Under the pieces are notes generated by a model. The model worked only from the letters and a program-made list of their open reading frames with translations. It was not told the DNA's origin and made no database searches. Shown one piece after another: positions 897-6,773 of a stretch of DNA of 64,000 bases. Every line of letters begins with the position of its first letter. The stretch's first letter is position 1. The DNA is taken from NCBI GenBank assembly GCA_017548075.1, contig JAFYNL010000027.1, positions 1-64,000 on the forward strand, in the 5' to 3' direction. This stretch comes from Bacteroidaceae bacterium (GTDB lineage Bacteria; Bacteroidota; Bacteroidia; Bacteroidales; Bacteroidaceae). The translations under genes and the position numbers were made by a program.

Positions 897-1112
897 ATGA
901 GCAAGTACGAAATTCCATATCTGACTGCGTGCATACAAGCTTTCGGACGACGGTTTAATCTGACCAGACAAGCCGCTTTCCGCTATTTGCACGAACACAA
1001 AGGGCTGGCGTTCTTGATTGAGTTCTTCGATGTGGAACATCTGCAATCAATGGACGAGACAATTGACGACCTGCTCATCGTCTGCAAGAAAAACGGGGGA
1101 GCATTGGCATGA
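897..1112 (+). CDS. DUF3791-type small protein, candidate antitoxin
   Basis: A 71-residue protein resembling the DUF3791 family: an N-terminal ACIQAFGRRFNLTRQAAFRYL helix-turn-like segment, then a central FFDVEHLQSMDETIDDLLIV stretch. DUF3791 proteins are commonly encoded beside DUF3990 proteins, as here. The stop overlaps the next start as ATGA (1109-1112), implying translational coupling. By position it may bind or neutralise the DUF3990 product; that role is inferred. No enzymatic motif is visible. A good promoter lies at 839-869. Confidence 0.65.
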   Translation: MSKYEIPYLTACIQAFGRRFNLTRQAAFRYLHEHKGLAFLIEFFDVEHLQSMDETIDDLLIVCKKNGGALA

Positions 1113-1597
1113 TACTCTATCACGGTACCAACGAGGACATCAAGCGCATTGACCTCAAAAAGGGGTTGCGACACAAAGACTTTGGCAAAGGCTTCTATCT
1201 GACGTCTGACCGAAATACAGCCATTCGTATGGCACAGAAGAGAGCAAGACTCTTCGGAGGTCAAGCAACATTGATTACGTACGAATTCGACGAGAAAGCT
1301 TTGACGTCTGACCTTAAAGTGAAAGTTTTCCCAGAGAAAGCTTGTGTGGAATGGCTTCTCTTTGTAGATGCTAATCGCGACCGAAAGAACACGGAGCCTA
1401 TCCACGACTATGACATCATCATTGGTCCTATAGCCAACGATGGCGTAGTGCTTCAACTGACCAACTACCGCGAGGGAATATATTCGCCAGAACAGGTGGC
1501 TGCGTTGCTTCAGGACAGATTCCTTGACCAACAATACTACTTCGGAACAGAGCGAGCTTTGTCTTTCCTCAGCAAAACAAATACCGAACCCGTATGA
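1109..1597 (+). CDS. DUF3990 protein, ADP-ribosyltransferase-like, candidate toxin
   Basis: A 162-residue protein. The N-terminus ILYHGT, followed by KDFGKGFYLTSD and then an RMAQKRA helix, fits the NAD-binding start of ADP-ribosyltransferase-fold proteins (the His of YHGT and the Tyr of GFYLT). DUF3990 belongs to that fold group. The C-terminal part is less typical and I cannot point to the catalytic glutamate with certainty. It is flanked by two small proteins with 4-bp ATGA overlaps on both sides, the arrangement expected of a toxin held by its partners. The toxin role is inference; the target is unknown. Confidence 0.65.
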   Translation: MILYHGTNEDIKRIDLKKGLRHKDFGKGFYLTSDRNTAIRMAQKRARLFGGQATLITYEFDEKALTSDLKVKVFPEKACVEWLLFVDANRDRKNTEPIHDYDIIIGPIANDGVVLQLTNYREGIYSPEQVAALLQDRFLDQQYYFGTERALSFLSKTNTEPV

Positions 1598-1806
1598 ACC
1601 AGCCCTCGCATCACCAAATAGCAACATATTTGATTGACTACGCTTTGAGCGAACTCGTGAAATATGTGATGGAAGATACTGGCTGCACCATTGAACAGGC
1701 AATGGAGCGGGTTTACAATTCTCCGCTGATGCCCGCCTTGCAGGACGAGGAAGGTGAACTTTATGTGCAAAGCCCTGCCTATCTGTACGAACTGATGATG
1801 CAGTAA
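1594..1806 (+). CDS. Small protein coupled to DUF3990, candidate second antitoxin
   Basis: A 70-residue protein whose start overlaps the DUF3990 stop (ATGA at 1594-1597). It has a helical N-terminus (YLIDYALSELVKYVMEDTG) and a distinctive C-terminus (QSPAYLYELMMQ). The pattern EDTG...AM..VYNS.L...L.D.E.ELY..SPAYLYEL is, to my recollection, typical of small proteins found beside DUF3990 genes. Function is unknown; its tight coupling suggests it works with the two genes before it. Confidence 0.6.
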   Translation: MNQPSHHQIATYLIDYALSELVKYVMEDTGCTIEQAMERVYNSPLMPALQDEEGELYVQSPAYLYELMMQ

Positions 1807-1820
1807 CACAATTCGCCACC

Positions 1821-3011
1821 ATGAAATATACTTTAGCACTAAAGAAACTGCCTTTCGAGCCGCTGAAGAAGCAGATTATCTACGTCGAAAGCAGTTACGA
1901 CGAGGCCGTCAACAAATACATTCAGGACAACCTGGAGCACCTCTGCGTTTATTGCCACTTGCGCGGATACGAGTTCTGCTACTTCCCCAAGATGTTCGAG
2001 AAGGGAATAGACGAGGATGTCCTCTTCTATAATGCTCCGTATGCCAATCGGGATGCCCAGCCAGAGTCCATCGGCAGCGACTTTCTGCTCCGATATATGT
2101 CGCATCCCGAGAACAAGGAACTCATCCCGCCTTCGCTGATTTATCTCAGCAAAAAAATGAAGGAGAAGCCCGAAAAAGGGGAAACGCTTTTCAAGGCTGT
2201 GTCCGTAACGGATCAGGACGAATACCCCACCATAGCTGACATCTTCGACCTGAGGCTGAAAGAAATCGTCAAGGAACTGTTTGAAGGGGTTGAATCTTCT
2301 TCGCAGGATATGTTCGATTTTGACGATTCTGATGAAAGCCTCTCCTACGAAAGGAAAAGGAGGGATGCCAACTTCTCCATTTCGGAAGAAAAGGAAAAGA
2401 AGGAAAAGAAGAGACCTCTCAGAAAGATTTGGGTAACTTTTGAAGAAATGCTGGGGGGAGATGAAAAGCCACAGCCCCCAAAGTCGGCCGACGACAGATT
2501 CGAAGAGGAAAGCACCCAACTATCGCCCGAGGTCAAGAAAGAAATAAAGAAAATGGTGGTGAAGCAGGGGGTTGATGCGCTTCAGCTAATACAATACATC
2601 AAGAGTCTGGAGCCGCTGAGTCGCCTGCGTATCACAAAGGATTTCCACATCTTCGTGCCCGACTATGGCAACAAAGAGATTGAAATGTTTCCTCTGCACA
2701 AGGCCGTCTTTCTGCTCTTCTTGCGGCATCCGGAAGGTATCATTTTCAAGCATCTGCCCGACTATAAGGAAGAGTTGATGGAGATATATTCCCAACTGAG
2801 ACCGACGGGAAACAGGGAAAAGATGTTGGAAACTATCGAGGATGCGACACTTCCATTCGGCGACTCCATCAATATATGTTGTTCCCGTATTCGAGAGGCT
2901 TTCGTAAAAAAATTCAAAGAACATCTGGCCCGCAACTACTTTATTACTGGCGAAAGGGGCGAAGCAAAGAAAATCACGCTTCCAAGGGATTTGGTAGTTT
3001 GGGAAGAATAA
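1821..3011 (+). CDS. Conserved hypothetical protein, 396 aa
   Basis: I do not recognise a named family. The N-terminal ~130 residues are mixed alpha/beta. Residues ~165-240 are highly charged and low in complexity (EEKEKKEKKRPLRK) and probably a flexible linker. The C-terminal ~120 residues look globular and conserved (PLHKAVFLLFLRHPEGIIFK, then CSRIREAFV and ITGERG), a pattern I associate with uncharacterised Bacteroidetes proteins. There is no signal peptide or membrane segment, so it is likely cytoplasmic. It starts 14 bp after the DUF3990 module and may share its transcript. A terminator follows directly. Confidence 0.55.
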   Translation: MKYTLALKKLPFEPLKKQIIYVESSYDEAVNKYIQDNLEHLCVYCHLRGYEFCYFPKMFEKGIDEDVLFYNAPYANRDAQPESIGSDFLLRYMSHPENKELIPPSLIYLSKKMKEKPEKGETLFKAVSVTDQDEYPTIADIFDLRLKEIVKELFEGVESSSQDMFDFDDSDESLSYERKRRDANFSISEEKEKKEKKRPLRKIWVTFEEMLGGDEKPQPPKSADDRFEEESTQLSPEVKKEIKKMVVKQGVDALQLIQYIKSLEPLSRLRITKDFHIFVPDYGNKEIEMFPLHKAVFLLFLRHPEGIIFKHLPDYKEELMEIYSQLRPTGNREKMLETIEDATLPFGDSINICCSRIREAFVKKFKEHLARNYFITGERGEAKKITLPRDLVVWEE

Positions 3012-3067: not shown

Positions 3068-3100
3068 TTTGGAAGAAATTAGGGGAATGCCGTAAATTTG
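3068..3100 (+). promoter_or_regulatory. Promoter of the Y RNA-Ro60-FtsZ transcription unit
   Basis: TTTG at 3068-3071, a 21-bp spacer, and TAAATTTG at 3093-3100. Downstream bases (cactCGAAATC) resemble the initiation regions of other promoters here. The predicted start is near 3105, 40 nt before the first Y-like RNA. I see no terminator between this promoter and the end of the FtsZ gene, so one primary transcript may carry all six RNAs, the tRNA-like element and both proteins. Confidence 0.65.
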
Positions 3101-3144: not shown

Positions 3145-3257
3145 GTGGAGCTGCCGTAGTGAGGAGTTACTTCGTTTATATGGGATGGTGCAGGATTTAG
3201 TTCCTGATTACCTCCGTAAGATTTTCCTAAAGTCTCCTTCTGACTGTTGCGCTCCAC
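3145..3257 (+). ncRNA. Y-like RNA 1 of six (Ro60-associated)
   Basis: The ends pair over 7 bp: GTGGAGC (3145-3151) with GCTCCAC (3251-3257). Inside them lie the invariant TGCCGTA (3152-3158) and TGTTGC (3245-3250). A second helix, GTGAGGAG (3159-3166) with CTCCTTCT (3234-3241), contains G-U pairs and one mismatch. GAC separates it from TGTTGC, and TTACTTCG follows on the 5' side. The head includes a CAGGA/TCCTG hairpin (3191-3206). The same architecture, with different paired sequences, recurs in five neighbours immediately upstream of a Ro60 gene. The Y RNA identity is inferred from structure and context. Confidence 0.8.
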
Positions 3258-3261
3258 CTCC

Positions 3262-3369
3262 AAGAGGTGGCGATTGCCGTAGCAAAGGATTTCTTCAACC
3301 TTGGCCATGTGACGGAATACCGCCATGGCTACCATTACGAACCTTTGCGATTGTTGCATCCCACCTTTT
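3262..3369 (+). ncRNA. Y-like RNA 2 of six
   Basis: The terminal helix pairs 3262-3274 with 3358-3369 (AGGTGG-c-GAT with ATC-CCACCT, extended by three outer pairs; C3271 is bulged). TGCCGTA is at 3275-3281 and TGTTGC at 3352-3357. The second helix is perfect: GCAAAGG (3282-3288) with CCTTTGC (3342-3348), followed by the 3-nt GAT. TTTCTTCA follows on the 5' side. The head contains GCCATG/CATGGC (3304-3309/3324-3329). Only 4 nt separate it from RNA 1. Confidence 0.85.
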
Positions 3370-3375
3370 ATAATA

Positions 3376-3566
3376 TATGCGATTGCCGTAATCATGAATT
3401 ACTTCGCAGAAAGAGCCGTGAGATACCGAAAGGAAGAGGGTGGTATGGAGAAATGCCTGCCACTGGTCTCAGGGCAGGTCTCGGATATGTAGGACAGTTC
3501 GACAGCTTGTAAAATATAATTACAAGTGAGGCCATAATGCATTTATGATGAATGTTGCATCGCATA
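3376..3566 (+). ncRNA. Y-like RNA 3 of six, long head
   Basis: TATGCGAT (3376-3383) pairs perfectly with ATCGCATA (3559-3566). TGCCGTA is at 3384-3390 and TGTTGC at 3553-3558. The second helix is ATCAT (3391-3395) with ATGAT (3545-3549), followed by GAA. TTACTTCG lies on the 5' side. At 191 nt it is the longest unit. Its head includes CTTGTAA/TTACAAG (3506-3512/3520-3526) and other possible stems that I could not resolve. Confidence 0.8.
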
Positions 3567-3570
3567 ACAA

Positions 3571-3736
3571 AAGCAAGTGCCGTAGAAAAGAATTTCTTCG
3601 CGATTGGTGCCTTGGTCGCTGGTTCGAATCCAGCTCGCAATCAATCTCGTCCCAACGTTTGATTTGGCCAACGAAATATTGCGATAGCTCAGTTGGTAGA
3701 GCATTGATTAGAGTCTTTTCGAATGTTGCCTTGCTT
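3571..3736 (+). ncRNA. Y-like RNA 4 of six, YrlA-type with a permuted tRNA module
   Basis: AAGCAAG (3571-3577) pairs with CTTGCTT (3730-3736). TGCCGTA is at 3578-3584 and TGTTGC at 3724-3729. The second helix GAAAAGA (3585-3591) pairs with TCTTTTC (3714-3720), followed by GAA. The head is a circularly permuted tRNA. A T-arm with a 5-bp stem and TTCGAAT loop (3618-3634) is followed by the 3' acceptor strand TCGCAAT (3635-3641). A 36-nt connector leads to the 5' acceptor strand ATTGCGA (3678-3684), a perfect 7-bp match, and then a canonical D-arm GCTC-AGTTGGTA-GAGC (3687-3702). This is the order known for bacterial YrlA RNAs, where the Ro-binding stem takes the place of the anticodon arm. Confidence 0.9.
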
Positions 3737-3741
3737 AATTT

Positions 3742-3814
3742 GGCGGAGTGATAGCAGTGGTCAGCTAGCAAGTTTCATAAGCTTGAAGTCGCAGGTTCGA
3801 ATCCTGCCTCCGCC
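3742..3814 (+). tRNA. tRNA-Met(CAT)-like gene with an irregular D-arm linker
   Basis: The acceptor stem GGCGGAG/CTCCGCC has 7 perfect pairs. The D-arm is TAGC-AGTGGTCA-GCTA. The anticodon arm is CAAGT-TTCATAA-GCTTG with anticodon CAT, and the T-arm is GCAGG-TTCGAAT-CCTGC. CCA is not encoded. Three nucleotides (TGA) rather than the usual two join the acceptor and D stems. It lies 5 nt after Y-like RNA 4 and 5 nt before RNA 5, inside the array. It could be a working elongator or initiator tRNA, a diverged copy, or a tRNA mimic linked to Ro60; sequence alone does not decide. Confidence 0.65.
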
Positions 3815-3819
3815 CCTAG

Positions 3820-3914
3820 AGCAGAATGCCGTAGGGAAACGGATACTTCACCGCCTCCACTTTAGGGGATGTTAATGGCGATTCCCCGACCGTAACCCGC
3901 CTGTTGCTTCTGCT
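3820..3914 (+). ncRNA. Y-like RNA 5 of six
   Basis: AGCAGAA (3820-3826) pairs with TTCTGCT (3908-3914). TGCCGTA is at 3827-3833 and TGTTGC at 3902-3907. The second helix is GGG-aaa-CGG (3834-3842) with CCG-taa-CCC (3890-3898), that is two 3-bp stems around a symmetric internal loop, followed by GCC. TACTTCA lies on the 5' side. The head has GGGGA/TCCCC (3865-3869/3883-3887). At 95 nt it is the shortest unit. Confidence 0.8.
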
Positions 3915-3917
3915 GTT

Positions 3918-4017
3918 TAAACGGTTGCCGTAGTGTAGTGATACATCATCAGCAATGGCCCTTTGAATTCTGGGTTGGGCTCCAGATTAGTTCACTCCAC
4001 GAGTGTTGCACCGTTTA
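3918..4017 (+). ncRNA. Y-like RNA 6 of six
   Basis: TAAACGGT (3918-3925) pairs with ACCGTTTA (4010-4017). TGCCGTA is at 3926-3932 and TGTTGC at 4004-4009. The second helix is GTG-ta-GTGA (3933-3941) with TCAC-tc-CAC (3992-4000), followed by GAG. The head has TCTGG/CCAGA (3969-3973/3982-3986). It ends 30 nt before the chosen Ro60 start codon, so it may also form the 5' leader of the Ro60 mRNA. Confidence 0.8.
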
Positions 4018-4047: not shown

Positions 4048-5568
4048 ATGAACTACAATTCGATGTTAAAAGAAATGAAGACTGAAAAAAACTATGAGGG
4101 TGCCAAAGCATATGCTATGACTCCCGAGTTGGAACTCTATTCTGCTGTTGTGACAGCTTCACTTAGCGATACTTTCTATGAAAAGCAAGACGAACGAGTT
4201 GAACGTATTGCCCAACTTATTAGTAAAGTATCACCTGAGTTTGTTGCTCGTCTTGCAGTTTATACACGAACACAGATGCATCTTCGTAGTATTCCATTGC
4301 TACTCTTGGTTGAACTGGCAAAGGTGCACAATGGCGACAATCTTGTGGCAAGAGCTGTAGAGAAGACAGTCCTTCGTGCAGATGAGATTATGGAACTGCT
4401 GATGTGTTATCAGTGGCGCAACCCTAGTGATGGGATCAAGAAGCTGGGCAAACTTTCGCGACAGATTCAGAATGGTTTGCAGAGAGCCTTCAATCGCTTT
4501 GATGAATACCAATTCGCAAAGTATAACCGAGACAATCTCGAGGTTAAACTTCGCGATGCATTATTCCTCGTCCACCCTAAAGCAAAGGATGAACAGCAGC
4601 AGGTTCTCTTCGATAAGATTGTAAATGATAAGTTAGAAACTCCTTATACCTGGGAAACTGAACTTTCTGCTCTTGGTCAACAAAAGTTTGAGTCGGATGA
4701 GTTGAAACAGGAAGCATTCCGCAAAAAGTGGGAAGAACTGATTGATAGTCGTAAGTTGGGCTATATGGCATTGATGCGAAATTTAAGAAATATGCTTCAG
4801 GCAAATGTTTCTATTCGTCAGATGCAAAAGGTAGGATATTGGATTTGTGATGATGAATCGGTCGCAGAATCAAAGCAATTGCCATTCCGCTATCTTTCTG
4901 CATATCGGGAGGTTGAGAAGATAGATTCCGTTCACACTACTAGGTTATTGAATGCTTTGGAGGCTGCGGTGAAATACTCAGCTTCAAACATCGAGGGATT
5001 CGACGAGAACACTCGAGTGCTATTAGCCTCCGACGTCAGTGGATCAATGGGTAAGTTAATCAGTCCGAGAAGTACTGTCCGCAACTTTGATATAGGGCTA
5101 TTACTATCTATGTTGCTTCGGAACCGATGCAAGCAGGTTGTTGCTGGCATTTTTGGAGATGATTGGAAAGTGGTGAATATGCCAAATGATAATATCTTAA
5201 TGGCAACCCGTCAGTTAGAACGCCTTGCTAATACTGTGGGATTCAGCACTAATGGTTACAAAGTCGTTGATTGGCTACTGGAGCAGAATCTTATCATGGA
5301 TAAAGTTATGATGTTCACAGATATGCAGATGTGGGATAATACCGGTCGTTACAAAACATTTGAGGACTCATGGAAAAGATACAAGCAGCTAGCTCCTAAT
5401 GCAAAACTCTATCTATTCGACCTTGATGGTTATGGCCAACTTCCCTTGCGACTTGCTGAGCCAGATGTGTTCCTTATTGCGGGTTGGAGCGATCGAGTGT
5501 TCGATGTTCTGTCTGCAATTGACAAAGGTGAAGATGCCCTTAGTGTTATAAATAAGGTTGAAATTTGA
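4048..5568 (+). CDS. rsr: Ro60 / TROVE-domain RNA-binding protein (Rsr)
   Basis: A 506-residue protein. The first ~310 residues are helical and HEAT-like, as in TROVE domains, which form a ring that clamps Y RNAs and grips misfolded RNA ends. A von Willebrand factor A-like domain follows, with an intact MIDAS motif DVSGSMG (Asp at ~329) and a later FTDMQMWD segment carrying the second acidic ligand (~425). An in-frame GTG at 4003 and ATG at 4027 exist, but the first lies inside Y-like RNA 6. I chose ATG 4048 because it fits the usual family length. The FtsZ homologue follows 11 bp later. Bacterial Ro60 proteins act with Y RNAs and nucleases in RNA quality control. Confidence 0.92.
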   Translation: MNYNSMLKEMKTEKNYEGAKAYAMTPELELYSAVVTASLSDTFYEKQDERVERIAQLISKVSPEFVARLAVYTRTQMHLRSIPLLLLVELAKVHNGDNLVARAVEKTVLRADEIMELLMCYQWRNPSDGIKKLGKLSRQIQNGLQRAFNRFDEYQFAKYNRDNLEVKLRDALFLVHPKAKDEQQQVLFDKIVNDKLETPYTWETELSALGQQKFESDELKQEAFRKKWEELIDSRKLGYMALMRNLRNMLQANVSIRQMQKVGYWICDDESVAESKQLPFRYLSAYREVEKIDSVHTTRLLNALEAAVKYSASNIEGFDENTRVLLASDVSGSMGKLISPRSTVRNFDIGLLLSMLLRNRCKQVVAGIFGDDWKVVNMPNDNILMATRQLERLANTVGFSTNGYKVVDWLLEQNLIMDKVMMFTDMQMWDNTGRYKTFEDSWKRYKQLAPNAKLYLFDLDGYGQLPLRLAEPDVFLIAGWSDRVFDVLSAIDKGEDALSVINKVEI

Positions 5569-5579
5569 GTTGCAGAACT

Positions 5580-6773
5580 ATGGAAGAGAAAATTGAGGGA
5601 ATTCAGTTTACTATCCCGACGGATAAAACGGAGCATCTGATAAAGGTGATTGGAGTTGGTGGTGGAGGCGGAAACGCCGTGAAGAGTATGTACGAGAAAG
5701 GGGTGAAGAACGTCACTTTCGCCGTCTGCAATACCGATAGTCAGGCTCTGAGCCGTTCTCCTATTCCCGTCAGAATCCAGCTTGGCGAGGAAGGTCTGGG
5801 CGTGGGCGGCAATCCCGAGAAAGGTCGCGAGAAAGCCGAGGAGAGCATGAAGGACATAGAACTCCTCTTCAACGACGAGACGAAGATGGTCTTCCTGACT
5901 GCAGGTCTGGGTGGAGGAACAGGAACGGGAGCCGCTCCCCTGATTGCCAAAGTGGCTCGTGAGAAAGGCATCCTGACCGTTGGCGTCGTCACCCTTCCTT
6001 TCCGCTTCGAGAAGAGGGCCAGAATGGAGAAAGCTCTGGCTGGAGTGGAGGAAATGAAGGAGAATGTGGATGCGCTCTTGGTGGTCAGCAACGAAAGACT
6101 CCTGGAGGTTTACAGCAACTCGATGCTCTCCATCGACGAGGCCTTCGGAAAGGCAAACGACATCCTCACCATCGCCACCAAAACCATCTCGGAAGTCATC
6201 ACAAAGGAAGGTATTGTGAACCGCGACTTCAAGGATGTGGAGACGGTGATGAAGGACAGTGGAAGAGCCATTGTAACTGTGGGCTACGGCAGCGGAGAGA
6301 AGCGCATCATCAAGGCTATGAAAGATGCTCTGAACTCGCCTCTCCTGAATACGAAGGAGATAGAGAAGGCTCAGCGTTTGCTCTATATCATCTATTCGTG
6401 CAACGAGAAGCCCGTGAGCATCACAGAACTGGGCGAGATAAACGACTTCATGGACACTCTGCCAGAGGATTTAGAGGTGCTCTGGGGACTTTATCCCGAC
6501 GATACGATAGGAGATCAGGTGAAGGTGGCTGTGGTGGCGACTGGCTTCGATAAGGCTCGGCAGCAAAAGGATTCGGAGAAAAGCGAGAACGTCAAAAAGC
6601 TTTGGGATATGTATTATCCTGAGCCCAAGCCCCTAGAACAAGAGGAAGCCGAACCGCTGGAAGACTCTCCAGAAGAAGAGGAAGAGGAGCCCCTGGTCGG
6701 ATGGAAAGAGAGAGGCCAGTCGTGGTTCAAAAGTTTTGTAGAATTTATGAAAAAGAGTTTGGAGGAGGAATAA
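5580..6773 (+). CDS. ftsZ: FtsZ homologue, probably a paralogue outside the dcw cluster
   Basis: A 397-residue tubulin-like GTPase. It has the N-terminal glycine loop GGGGGNA (27-33), the tubulin signature GGGTGTG (111-117), and the T7 catalytic loop with N214, D216 and D219, matching the residues needed for GTP hydrolysis. The C-terminus is unusual: a highly acidic stretch, then an amphipathic end (SWFKSFVEFMKKSLEEE) instead of the arginine-rich tail I expect in the main Bacteroidales FtsZ. It lies 11 bp after Ro60, away from ftsA, ftsQ or mur genes. That suggests a second FtsZ, though I cannot see the rest of the genome. The start at 5580 is preferred over an in-frame TTG at 5565 that overlaps the upstream stop. 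Confidence 0.85.
   Translation: MEEKIEGIQFTIPTDKTEHLIKVIGVGGGGGNAVKSMYEKGVKNVTFAVCNTDSQALSRSPIPVRIQLGEEGLGVGGNPEKGREKAEESMKDIELLFNDETKMVFLTAGLGGGTGTGAAPLIAKVAREKGILTVGVVTLPFRFEKRARMEKALAGVEEMKENVDALLVVSNERLLEVYSNSMLSIDEAFGKANDILTIATKTISEVITKEGIVNRDFKDVETVMKDSGRAIVTVGYGSGEKRIIKAMKDALNSPLLNTKEIEKAQRLLYIIYSCNEKPVSITELGEINDFMDTLPEDLEVLWGLYPDDTIGDQVKVAVVATGFDKARQQKDSEKSENVKKLWDMYYPEPKPLEQEEAEPLEDSPEEEEEEPLVGWKERGQSWFKSFVEFMKKSLEEE

What the first reader, a model, noticed from the sequence alone, without database searches (positions are those of the whole stretch)
3145..4017. Tandem array of six Y-like RNAs directly upstream of a Ro60 gene
Six consecutive units (3145-3257, 3262-3369, 3376-3566, 3571-3736, 3820-3914, 3918-4017) share one architecture. 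Terminal helices of 7-12 bp differ completely between units yet always pair. Inside them TGCCGTA (5') and TGTTGC (3') are invariant in all six. A second helix of differing but mostly complementary sequence follows (for example GCAAAGG/CCTTTGC and GAAAAGA/TCTTTTC; weakest, with a mismatch, in RNA 1). Exactly three bases (usually GAN) lie before TGTTGC, and a TWCTTCR-like block follows on the 5' side in five of the six. This is strong covariation for a structured RNA family with a fixed protein-binding core and six different heads. Bacterial Ro60 loci usually show one or two Y RNAs; an array of six with mostly non-tRNA-like heads is, to my knowledge, not described.
Basis: partly seen in the sequence, partly recalled or inferred. 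Interest (0 to 1): 0.95.

Follow-up and report, generated by a model that had tools for sequence, protein, structure and literature searches.

The report
Six-gene Y RNA array beside Ro60
A gut-type bacterium carries, just before its gene for the RNA-binding ring protein Ro60, six different small Y RNA genes and a tRNA gene in a row; relatives carry similar sets in a kept order whose heads imitate different parts of transfer RNA, which suggests a toolkit for handling damaged tRNA.

Summary
All six units are present; the true arm pairing is the best of 720 for both helices, and 15 of 18 core pairs change on both sides. A covariance model of the six cores gives 136 matches in 87 Ro60 loci of relatives. 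Joined with a descriptor scan, 237 of 238 units lie within 2 kb of Ro60, all on its strand. In 393 genomes of the order, strong matches occur only in Ro60-bearing genomes. By layout and linkage these are bacterial Y RNAs; binding is untested. Arrays are common among these relatives (three or more units in 46 of 82 loci), so six is the top of a range. New, as far as I could check: units fall into classes kept in the order A-B-C-(tRNA-Met)-D-E (7 of 122 pairs out of order), and in relatives the Y core is grafted into different places of a tRNA. Class C is YrlA-like without an anticodon arm; class B and many class E units carry covarying anticodon arms. Relatives' neighbours include RNA-repair genes. 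Key papers were not held, so novelty is provisional.

The parts
3068..3100 (+). Bacteroidota-type promoter-like site, TTTG-N21-TAAATTTG; predicted start of the array transcript just downstream
   Evidence: regular-expression match; consensus TAnnTTTG / TTTG as stated in passages of PMC7366714
3145..3257 (+). Y RNA unit 1 (class A); head carries a hairpin CAGGA-TTTAGT-TCCTG, anticodon-arm-like but with a 6-base loop
   Evidence: fold z -3.97; not matched by model R1 up to E 10
3264..3369 (+). Y RNA unit 2 (class A by stem)
   Evidence: 57.1 bits; fold z -4.37 for 3263-3369
3376..3566 (+). Y RNA unit 3, long head (stem of no class)
   Evidence: model R1 finds only its two ends separately, E 0.28 and 0.8; fold z -2.98
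3571..3736 (+). Y RNA unit 4 (class C): circularly permuted tRNA-like head (T arm, acceptor, D arm), Y core in place of the anticodon loop (read by eye)
   Evidence: Rfam YrlA RF02553 31.5 bits, below gathering 69; read as tRNA by ARAGORN only after rotation; R1 matches its 5' part only
3742..3816 (+). tRNA-Met(CAT) gene inside the array, close to units 4 and 5
   Evidence: (57.6 bits); no near copy found in the genome, 88% complete
3820..3914 (+). Y RNA unit 5 (class D)
   Evidence: 49.9 bits; fold z -0.66
3918..4017 (+). Y RNA unit 6 (class E by stem); head conserved in L027 and L032, hairpin with possible pseudoknot GCCC/GGGC (read by eye)
   Evidence: (60.6 bits); fold z -1.48
4048..5568 (+). 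Ro60 ortholog (TROVE and vWA), 506 aa
   Evidence: PF05731 3e-27; PF25045 vWA_Ro60 4.5e-6, 27.1 bits, just under its cut-off 27.7
5580..6773 (+). second FtsZ paralog directly downstream of Ro60
   Evidence: PF00091, PF12327; the other FtsZ is on contig C29
1821..3011 (+). 396-aa protein of unknown family, with relatives near Ro60 elsewhere
   Evidence: 9 copies in 7 of 87 loci, the window included; no Pfam match

Best explanation
The locus makes six different Y RNAs, probably from one transcript that also carries tRNA-Met and Ro60 itself. Each has the same stem core, which Ro60 should grip on its outer face, and a different head. Shown by sequence: the array, the core, the linkage to Ro60, the class order in relatives, and tRNA-derived heads of classes B, C and E there. 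Inferred: cutting at the tRNA and between the abutting stems frees the units; each Y RNA gates the Ro60 ring; and each head is an interchangeable adaptor that brings Ro60 to a different partner. Those partners would be tRNA-recognising enzymes (modification, repair or nuclease enzymes) and PNPase, because relatives encode RtcB, RlaP, PNKP and Thg1-like enzymes near the array. The array would give one Ro60 several alternative specificities in handling damaged structured RNA, tRNA above all.
For: Core and covariation. Model matches tied to Ro60. Conserved class order, 7 of 122 pairs out of order against a shuffled mean of 60.6, minimum 35 of 1000. 32 of 111 long heads read as tRNA only after rotation, 0 of 111 in each of 10 shuffles. 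Anticodon-arm-like hairpins in 30 of 203 units against a mean of 2.1 and a maximum of 6 in 50 shuffles. Covariation of class E arms and of the class B permuted tRNA. RNA-repair neighbours in relatives. Tethering of PNPase by a Y RNA in Deinococcus, as described in passages of PMC7790460 and PMC8394870.
Against: No expression or binding data. No RtcB was found in the window's genome and no RNA-repair family among the six neighbouring proteins tested; an FtsZ paralog follows instead. Five of the window's six heads are not clearly tRNA-like. By stem rule alone only 15 of 35 class E units have the anticodon-arm hairpin, and the window's own is not among them. Model R1 does not match an Rfam-confirmed YrlA of Rhizobium etli. 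Units 4-6 fold only slightly better than shuffles. One weak R1 match (L156) resembles the core in a genome with no TROVE match.
Confidence: 0.6

Rival explanations
1. The heads are decoys: tRNA-shaped baits held on Ro60 that soak up anticodon nucleases or tRNA-modifying toxins, sparing real tRNAs.
For: In relatives, classes B and E carry anticodon arms with many triplets (12 kinds in 18 class E units, three of which I added by hand; 6 of 9 class B units are NCG; U33 and a purine at 37 were part of the search rule). Passages of PMC7790460 propose that YrlA could competitively inhibit an anticodon nuclease. A tRNA-Met adjoins a unit in 16 of 61 loci examined.
Against: The window's units lack a standard anticodon arm; unit 1 has only a 6-base-loop hairpin. 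Class C lacks the anticodon arm: its 26 loose hairpins of 37 units are T loops except 5, of which 4 are D arms by reading. I did not search the loci for nuclease genes.
Confidence: 0.2
2. The array is mainly a cis-acting leader that regulates Ro60: free Ro60 binds the stems of its own transcript and changes its processing or translation.
For: In the window the array lies between a promoter-like site and Ro60; 150 of 237 units are upstream of Ro60.
Against: 87 of 237 units lie downstream of Ro60; class order and tRNA-like heads are not needed for this.
Confidence: 0.1
3. Ordinary tandem duplication of one Y RNA with heads drifting without selection.
For: Same core in all units; heads differ strongly; many of the loci compared are related by descent.
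Against: Order and class-specific stems persist in related loci; heads covary as tRNA parts; the unit 6 head is conserved in three loci.
Confidence: 0.07

Closest known systems
YrlA bacterial Y RNA (Rfam RF02553; seen here in Rhizobium etli)
   Same: Stem formed by both ends, internal loop with 3' TGTYGC, TACWTC-like block after the inner helix (read by eye), head = T arm, acceptor and D arm of a permuted tRNA (unit 4 and class C); lies next to Ro60.
   Different: Window units do not reach the Rfam gathering score (31.5 of 69 for unit 4; no match for the others). Several units per locus, kept order, and heads with anticodon arms in relatives.
Deinococcus radiodurans Y RNA in the RYPER complex (Rsr-Y RNA-PNPase)
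   Same: Y RNA of an Ro60-bearing bacterium; tethering and gating role (passages).
   Different: PNPase binding is unknown here; six different heads in one array.
rsr-yrlBA-rtcBA RNA repair operon of Salmonella
   Same: RtcB lies near Ro60 in 37 of 87 loci of relatives.
   Different: A WYL-domain regulator lies near Ro60 in 43 of 87 loci; RtcR was not looked for. No RtcB found in the window's genome.
Circularly permuted tRNA genes (recalled)
   Same: Class B and C heads read as tRNA only after rotation.
   Different: The acceptor end is closed by a loop with no CCA end, and the break is filled by the Y core, so a mature tRNA is not expected (inference).

Membership tests
Bacterial Y RNA | Encoded beside an Ro60 ortholog | tested here: met
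   30 bases between unit 6 and the Ro60 ATG; 237 of 238 units within 2 kb and on the same strand; genome control
Bacterial Y RNA | Long stem from base pairing of the 5' and 3' ends | tested here: met
Bacterial Y RNA | Conserved Ro60-binding motif in the stem shared with proven Y RNAs | tested here: inconclusive
   R. etli YrlA shows UGUCGC, UGC and CUACAUC at matching places (read by eye), but model R1 gives no match there up to E 5
Bacterial Y RNA | At least one tRNA-like Y RNA in the species (feature recalled from the abstract of Chen 2014) | tested here: met
   unit 4
Bacterial Y RNA | Physical binding to Ro60 | not testable with these tools
   needs pulldown
Rfam YrlA RF02553 | Score at or above the gathering threshold | tested here: not met
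   31.5 against 69 for unit 4, no match for the others; none in 12 related loci
RYPER complex | Y RNA tethers Ro60 to PNPase | not testable with these tools
   needs biochemistry
Ro60-RtcB RNA repair operon | RtcB in the same locus | tested here: not met
   no RtcB match in the window's genome, 88% complete; RtcB cluster present in 37 of 87 loci of relatives
tRNA gene | Head reads as tRNA in its natural order | tested here: not met
   2 of 203 distinct heads do, neither in the window

The most novel reading that the evidence does not exclude
Bacteroidota Ro60 loci encode an ordered kit of Y RNAs in which the same Ro60-binding core is grafted into different points of the tRNA fold (anticodon loop in class C, D loop in class B, acceptor half in class E). 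Together they present every face of a tRNA, including anticodon arms that differ from genome to genome. The kit lets one Ro60 engage, or serve as bait for, enzymes that act on each part of tRNA, as part of tRNA damage repair and conflict with phages or toxins.
Probability: 0.35. Interest if true: 0.85.

Novelty: new variant of a known kind. Interest (0 to 1): 0.68.

Why it matters
What bacterial Y RNAs are for is open beyond Deinococcus. A kit of Y RNAs with one core and several heads, kept in order and mimicking separate tRNA parts, makes the adaptor idea directly testable: swap or delete single heads and ask which partner is lost. Anticodon arms on Y RNAs bear on the suggestion in PMC7790460 (passage) that a Y RNA may compete for an anticodon nuclease; the YrlA discussed there has no such arm. 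The group also matters because lupus sera precipitate Ro60 particles, with bacterial Y RNAs, from Bacteroides thetaiotaomicron, as a passage of the review PMC11277228 reports. At gathering score Rfam names none of the units as Y RNA in the window or in 12 related loci.

Tried and rejected
Rejected: chance helices; a family of repeats unrelated to Ro60; real permuted tRNA genes, since the acceptor end is closed by a loop without CCA and the break is filled by the Y core. Led nowhere: Rfam at gathering score sees only tRNA in the window and no YrlA in 12 related or 12 viral loci. Model R1 gave no match in 5 phage or plasmid Ro60 loci, though Rfam YrlA scored 98.4 bits in one of them. The 396-aa neighbour has no Pfam match and only weak matches in solved structures (E 0.0093 and 0.81), and a viral-contig scan for close relatives of it confirmed none. 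Of 4 weak R1 matches in genomes without TROVE, I saw the alignment of two (L156, L157) and only the score of a third (L158); the fourth was not fetched; L156 resembles the core. MAFFT on whole units misplaced unit 5, so joined arms were used. My loose hairpin rule also accepts T arms: it flags 26 of 37 class C units and one class B unit (L044), so I count 9, not 10, of 11 class B units. In one search the class E rule held a clause that added three units by hand (L065, L069, L081) after I had seen their hairpins; by stem alone the count is 15 of 35, or 14 when T-like loops are struck out. One search put one L027 unit downstream because of an over-long reading frame; one search mends this (150 up, 87 down). 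In one search two L027 units stand downstream for the same reason and so are missing from the order test.

Full report
What is there. The stretch 3145-4017 holds six units with one layout: a terminal helix, TGCCGTA, an inner helix, a TWCTTCR-like block, a variable head, the inner helix's partner, three bases (GAN in five of six), TGTTGC, and the terminal helix's partner. If the 3' arms are dealt out among the units in all 720 ways, only the true pairing reaches its own score, for each helix separately. On an alignment of the joined arms 15 of 18 pairs have changes on both sides and no shuffle of 500 reaches any of the five measures. The constant GC/GC step means that the terminal helix continues past a bulged T. 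Energy alone is a weak witness: fold z-scores are -3.97, -4.37, -2.98, -1.34, -0.66 and -1.48.

Between units 4 and 5 lies a tRNA-Met(CAT) gene, 3742-3816. No near copy was found in the genome. I ran ARAGORN on 60 of the 87 related loci; with the window, a tRNA-Met stands within 12 bases of a unit in 16 of 61. A promoter-like site of the Bacteroidota type (TTTG-N21-TAAATTTG, 3068-3100) lies before unit 1 (consensus from passages of PMC7366714). A looser pattern, TTG-N17-23-TAnnTTTG, precedes the first unit in only 5 of 51 loci, against 0.35 in shuffles, so it is not a general rule.

Surroundings. Ro60 (TROVE; the vWA domain just under its Pfam cut-off) starts 30 bases after unit 6. Then comes an FtsZ paralog; the genome's other FtsZ is on contig C29. 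Upstream is a 396-aa protein without Pfam match; its cluster has 9 copies in 7 of 87 Ro60 loci, the window included. The genome, 2.66 Mb in 66 contigs and 88% complete, gave no RtcB match.

Linkage to Ro60. The model R1 built from the six cores recovers units 2, 5 and 6 in full, units 3 and 4 in part and unit 1 not at all up to E 10. In the own genome its 4 matches at E up to 1 are all in the array. TROVE occurs in 2 of 139 genomes of the genus and 6 of 393 of the order, the own genome included. In a draw of 393 genomes of the order with the same handles, R1 gives strong matches (E below 1e-7) in 5 genomes, all TROVE-positive; the sixth TROVE genome has none, and 4 genomes without TROVE have weak matches (4e-4 to 8e-3), near the 3.9 expected at E 0.01. 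This is the unbiased test. In a second set, 87 Ro60 loci, R1 gives 136 matches at E up to 0.05; since only Ro60 loci were searched there, the point is where in them the matches lie. 80 of the 87 are the best of 452 relatives found in a capped scan, so they are the kin nearest to the window; nearly all are labelled Bacteroidota (L076 is labelled Limnohabitans). My descriptor scan has no hit in 1.03 Mb of shuffled sequence, one strand.

Array sizes. Joining both searches, and leaving out L059 because its Ro60 was not in my gene list, gives 238 units in 82 loci; 237 are within 2 kb of Ro60 and all 238 are on its strand; 150 are upstream and 87 downstream. Units per locus: 14 loci with one, 22 with two, 19 with three, 16 with four, 8 with five, 3 with six. 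Of the 88 loci scanned (window, L015, L017-L022, L027-L106) 83 have a unit by either search; L022, L055, L073, L079 and L094 have none, and the contigs of L055 and L079 begin at or inside the Ro60 gene. L107 is the same contig as L015. Among viral contigs with Ro60, R1 gives 26 matches at E up to 0.5 in 20 of 44 loci, all on the Ro60 strand.

Classes and order. By the terminal stem, units fall into classes that I name A to E. In the loci with units upstream of Ro60, 122 pairs of units of different class can be compared; 7 are out of the order A-B-C-D-E, against a mean of 60.6 and a minimum of 35 in 1000 shuffles. The window reads A, A, no class, C, tRNA-Met, D, E. 33 upstream units and 74 of 92 downstream ones have no class, and many of these loci are related by descent, so the events are fewer than the counts.

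Heads as pieces of tRNA. Unit 4 matches the tRNA-like part of Rfam YrlA below the gathering score (31.5 against 69). Of 111 heads that are at least 60 bases long after trimming, 32 are read as tRNA by ARAGORN only after circular rotation; shuffled heads give 0 in each of 10 trials, and 2 of 203 read as tRNA unrotated. The anticodons that ARAGORN prints for class C are not to be trusted: that class has no anticodon arm (its loose hairpins are T loops in all but 5 of 26 units, 4 of these being D arms by reading). Class B is a permuted tRNA with its anticodon arm and with the Y core in the D loop. On 11 sequences that I chose for this likeness (L061 has a class C stem; L020 was left out), 99.2% of cells pair, all five anticodon-stem pairs, two of five T-stem pairs and two of six acceptor pairs change on both sides, and four of five measures exceed every shuffle (the number of pair types does not, 99 of 500). 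The four D-stem pairs never vary and so say nothing. Class E often shows a D arm followed by an anticodon arm: on 16 sequences chosen for having the hairpin, 6 of 8 pairs change on both sides and 0 of 500 shuffles reach this. That choice favours pairing; by stem rule alone 15 of 35 class E units have the hairpin (14 when T-like loops are struck out, against a shuffled mean of 2.2 and maximum of 7 in 100). Over all units a stricter rule gives 30 of 203 against a mean of 2.1 and a maximum of 6 in 50 dinucleotide shuffles; a few of the 30 do not sit in an anticodon-arm context. The 18 class E triplets, three added by hand, are of 12 kinds (CAT three times; TGT, GAT, GTA and CTT twice; TTT, AAT, TGG, GAA, CGG, CCT and AAA once), and 6 of 9 class B triplets are NCG. 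The window's unit 6 has instead a hairpin whose stem covaries in three loci and whose loop could pair upstream, a possible pseudoknot (read by eye).

Neighbours in relatives. Clustering open reading frames of 87 loci gives a cluster with a WYL-domain member near 43 and one with an RtcB member near 37. Smaller clusters hold RlaP polymerases (8 and 7 loci), a PNKP-type kinase-phosphatase (7), a Thg1-like enzyme (6) and a T4-type RNA ligase (3). The family was tested on one representative each. These are RNA-repair functions, in line with the Salmonella operon in passages of PMC7790460.

Known or new. Y RNAs near Ro60, the tRNA-like YrlA module and the link to RtcB are known. Passages of PMC8394870 describe bacterial Y RNA as having D, T and acceptor arms. 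Nine literature searches, of which I saw listings (capped at 25 of 51 and 25 of 250) and passages of seven papers, showed no account of Bacteroidota arrays, their order or anticodon-bearing Y RNAs. The main papers (Chen 2014, Sim and Wolin 2018, Sim 2020, Burroughs and Aravind 2016) are not held, so the claim of novelty is provisional. From recall, the abstract of Chen 2014 says that at least one Y RNA per species is tRNA-like, which implies that several per species were already seen.

Mechanism. Shown by sequence: array, core, linkage, order, tRNA-derived heads in relatives. Inferred: processing at the tRNA and between abutting stems, Ro60 binding, and heads as adaptors for tRNA-handling enzymes and PNPase. 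A decoy role against anticodon nucleases is the main rival. Neither has been tested, and in the window itself, without RtcB and with mainly non-tRNA heads, the case rests on its relatives. The checked facts did not require a change of odds.

Noticed in passing
window 3742-3816: tRNA-Met(CAT) gene inside the Y RNA array, no near copy found elsewhere in the genome; a tRNA-Met adjoins a unit in 16 of 61 loci examined.
   Followed up: yes
window 5580-6773: Second FtsZ paralog right behind Ro60; the genome's other FtsZ (441-codon frame) is on contig C29. It was not among the shared neighbour clusters printed.
   Followed up: partly
window 1821-3011: 396-aa protein of unknown family whose relatives, long and short, recur near Ro60 (7 of 87 loci, the window included); weak profile match to PDB 6n7m (E 0.0093).
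   Followed up: partly
window 897-1803: Three small genes: DUF3791, DUF3990 (weakly ADP-ribosyltransferase-like) and a 70-aa gene, matching PADLOC candidate systems PDC-M13A, M13B and M13C.
   Followed up: no
L107 (IMG/VR contig; L108 is similar but was not analysed): Ro60 85% identical to the window's, with homologs of units 4-6, tRNA-Met and RtcB, behind a gene with a weak terminase match (phrog_2, E 1.2e-5); perhaps carried by a phage.
   Followed up: partly
window 3254-3270: The 3' end of unit 1 and the 5' end of unit 2 could form their own hairpin (CCACCTC-caa-GAGGTGG), a possible processing signal.
   Followed up: no
L098 8546-8620, L101 7958-8032, L076 8174-8308: Y units whose heads hold CCTGTCACGC right after the TTCG block, like the anticodon loop of tRNA-Asp (likeness recalled).
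   Followed up: no
L059 6402-7563; L163: Large tRNA gene clusters beside Ro60: 13 tRNAs in 1.2 kb in L059, and 18 annotated tRNAs in the stretch of Arthrobacter phage Atuin, where R1 found no Y unit.
   Followed up: no
L156 1501-1558 (genome G323): Weak R1 match that resembles the Y core without a head, in a genome where no TROVE match was found.
   Followed up: partly
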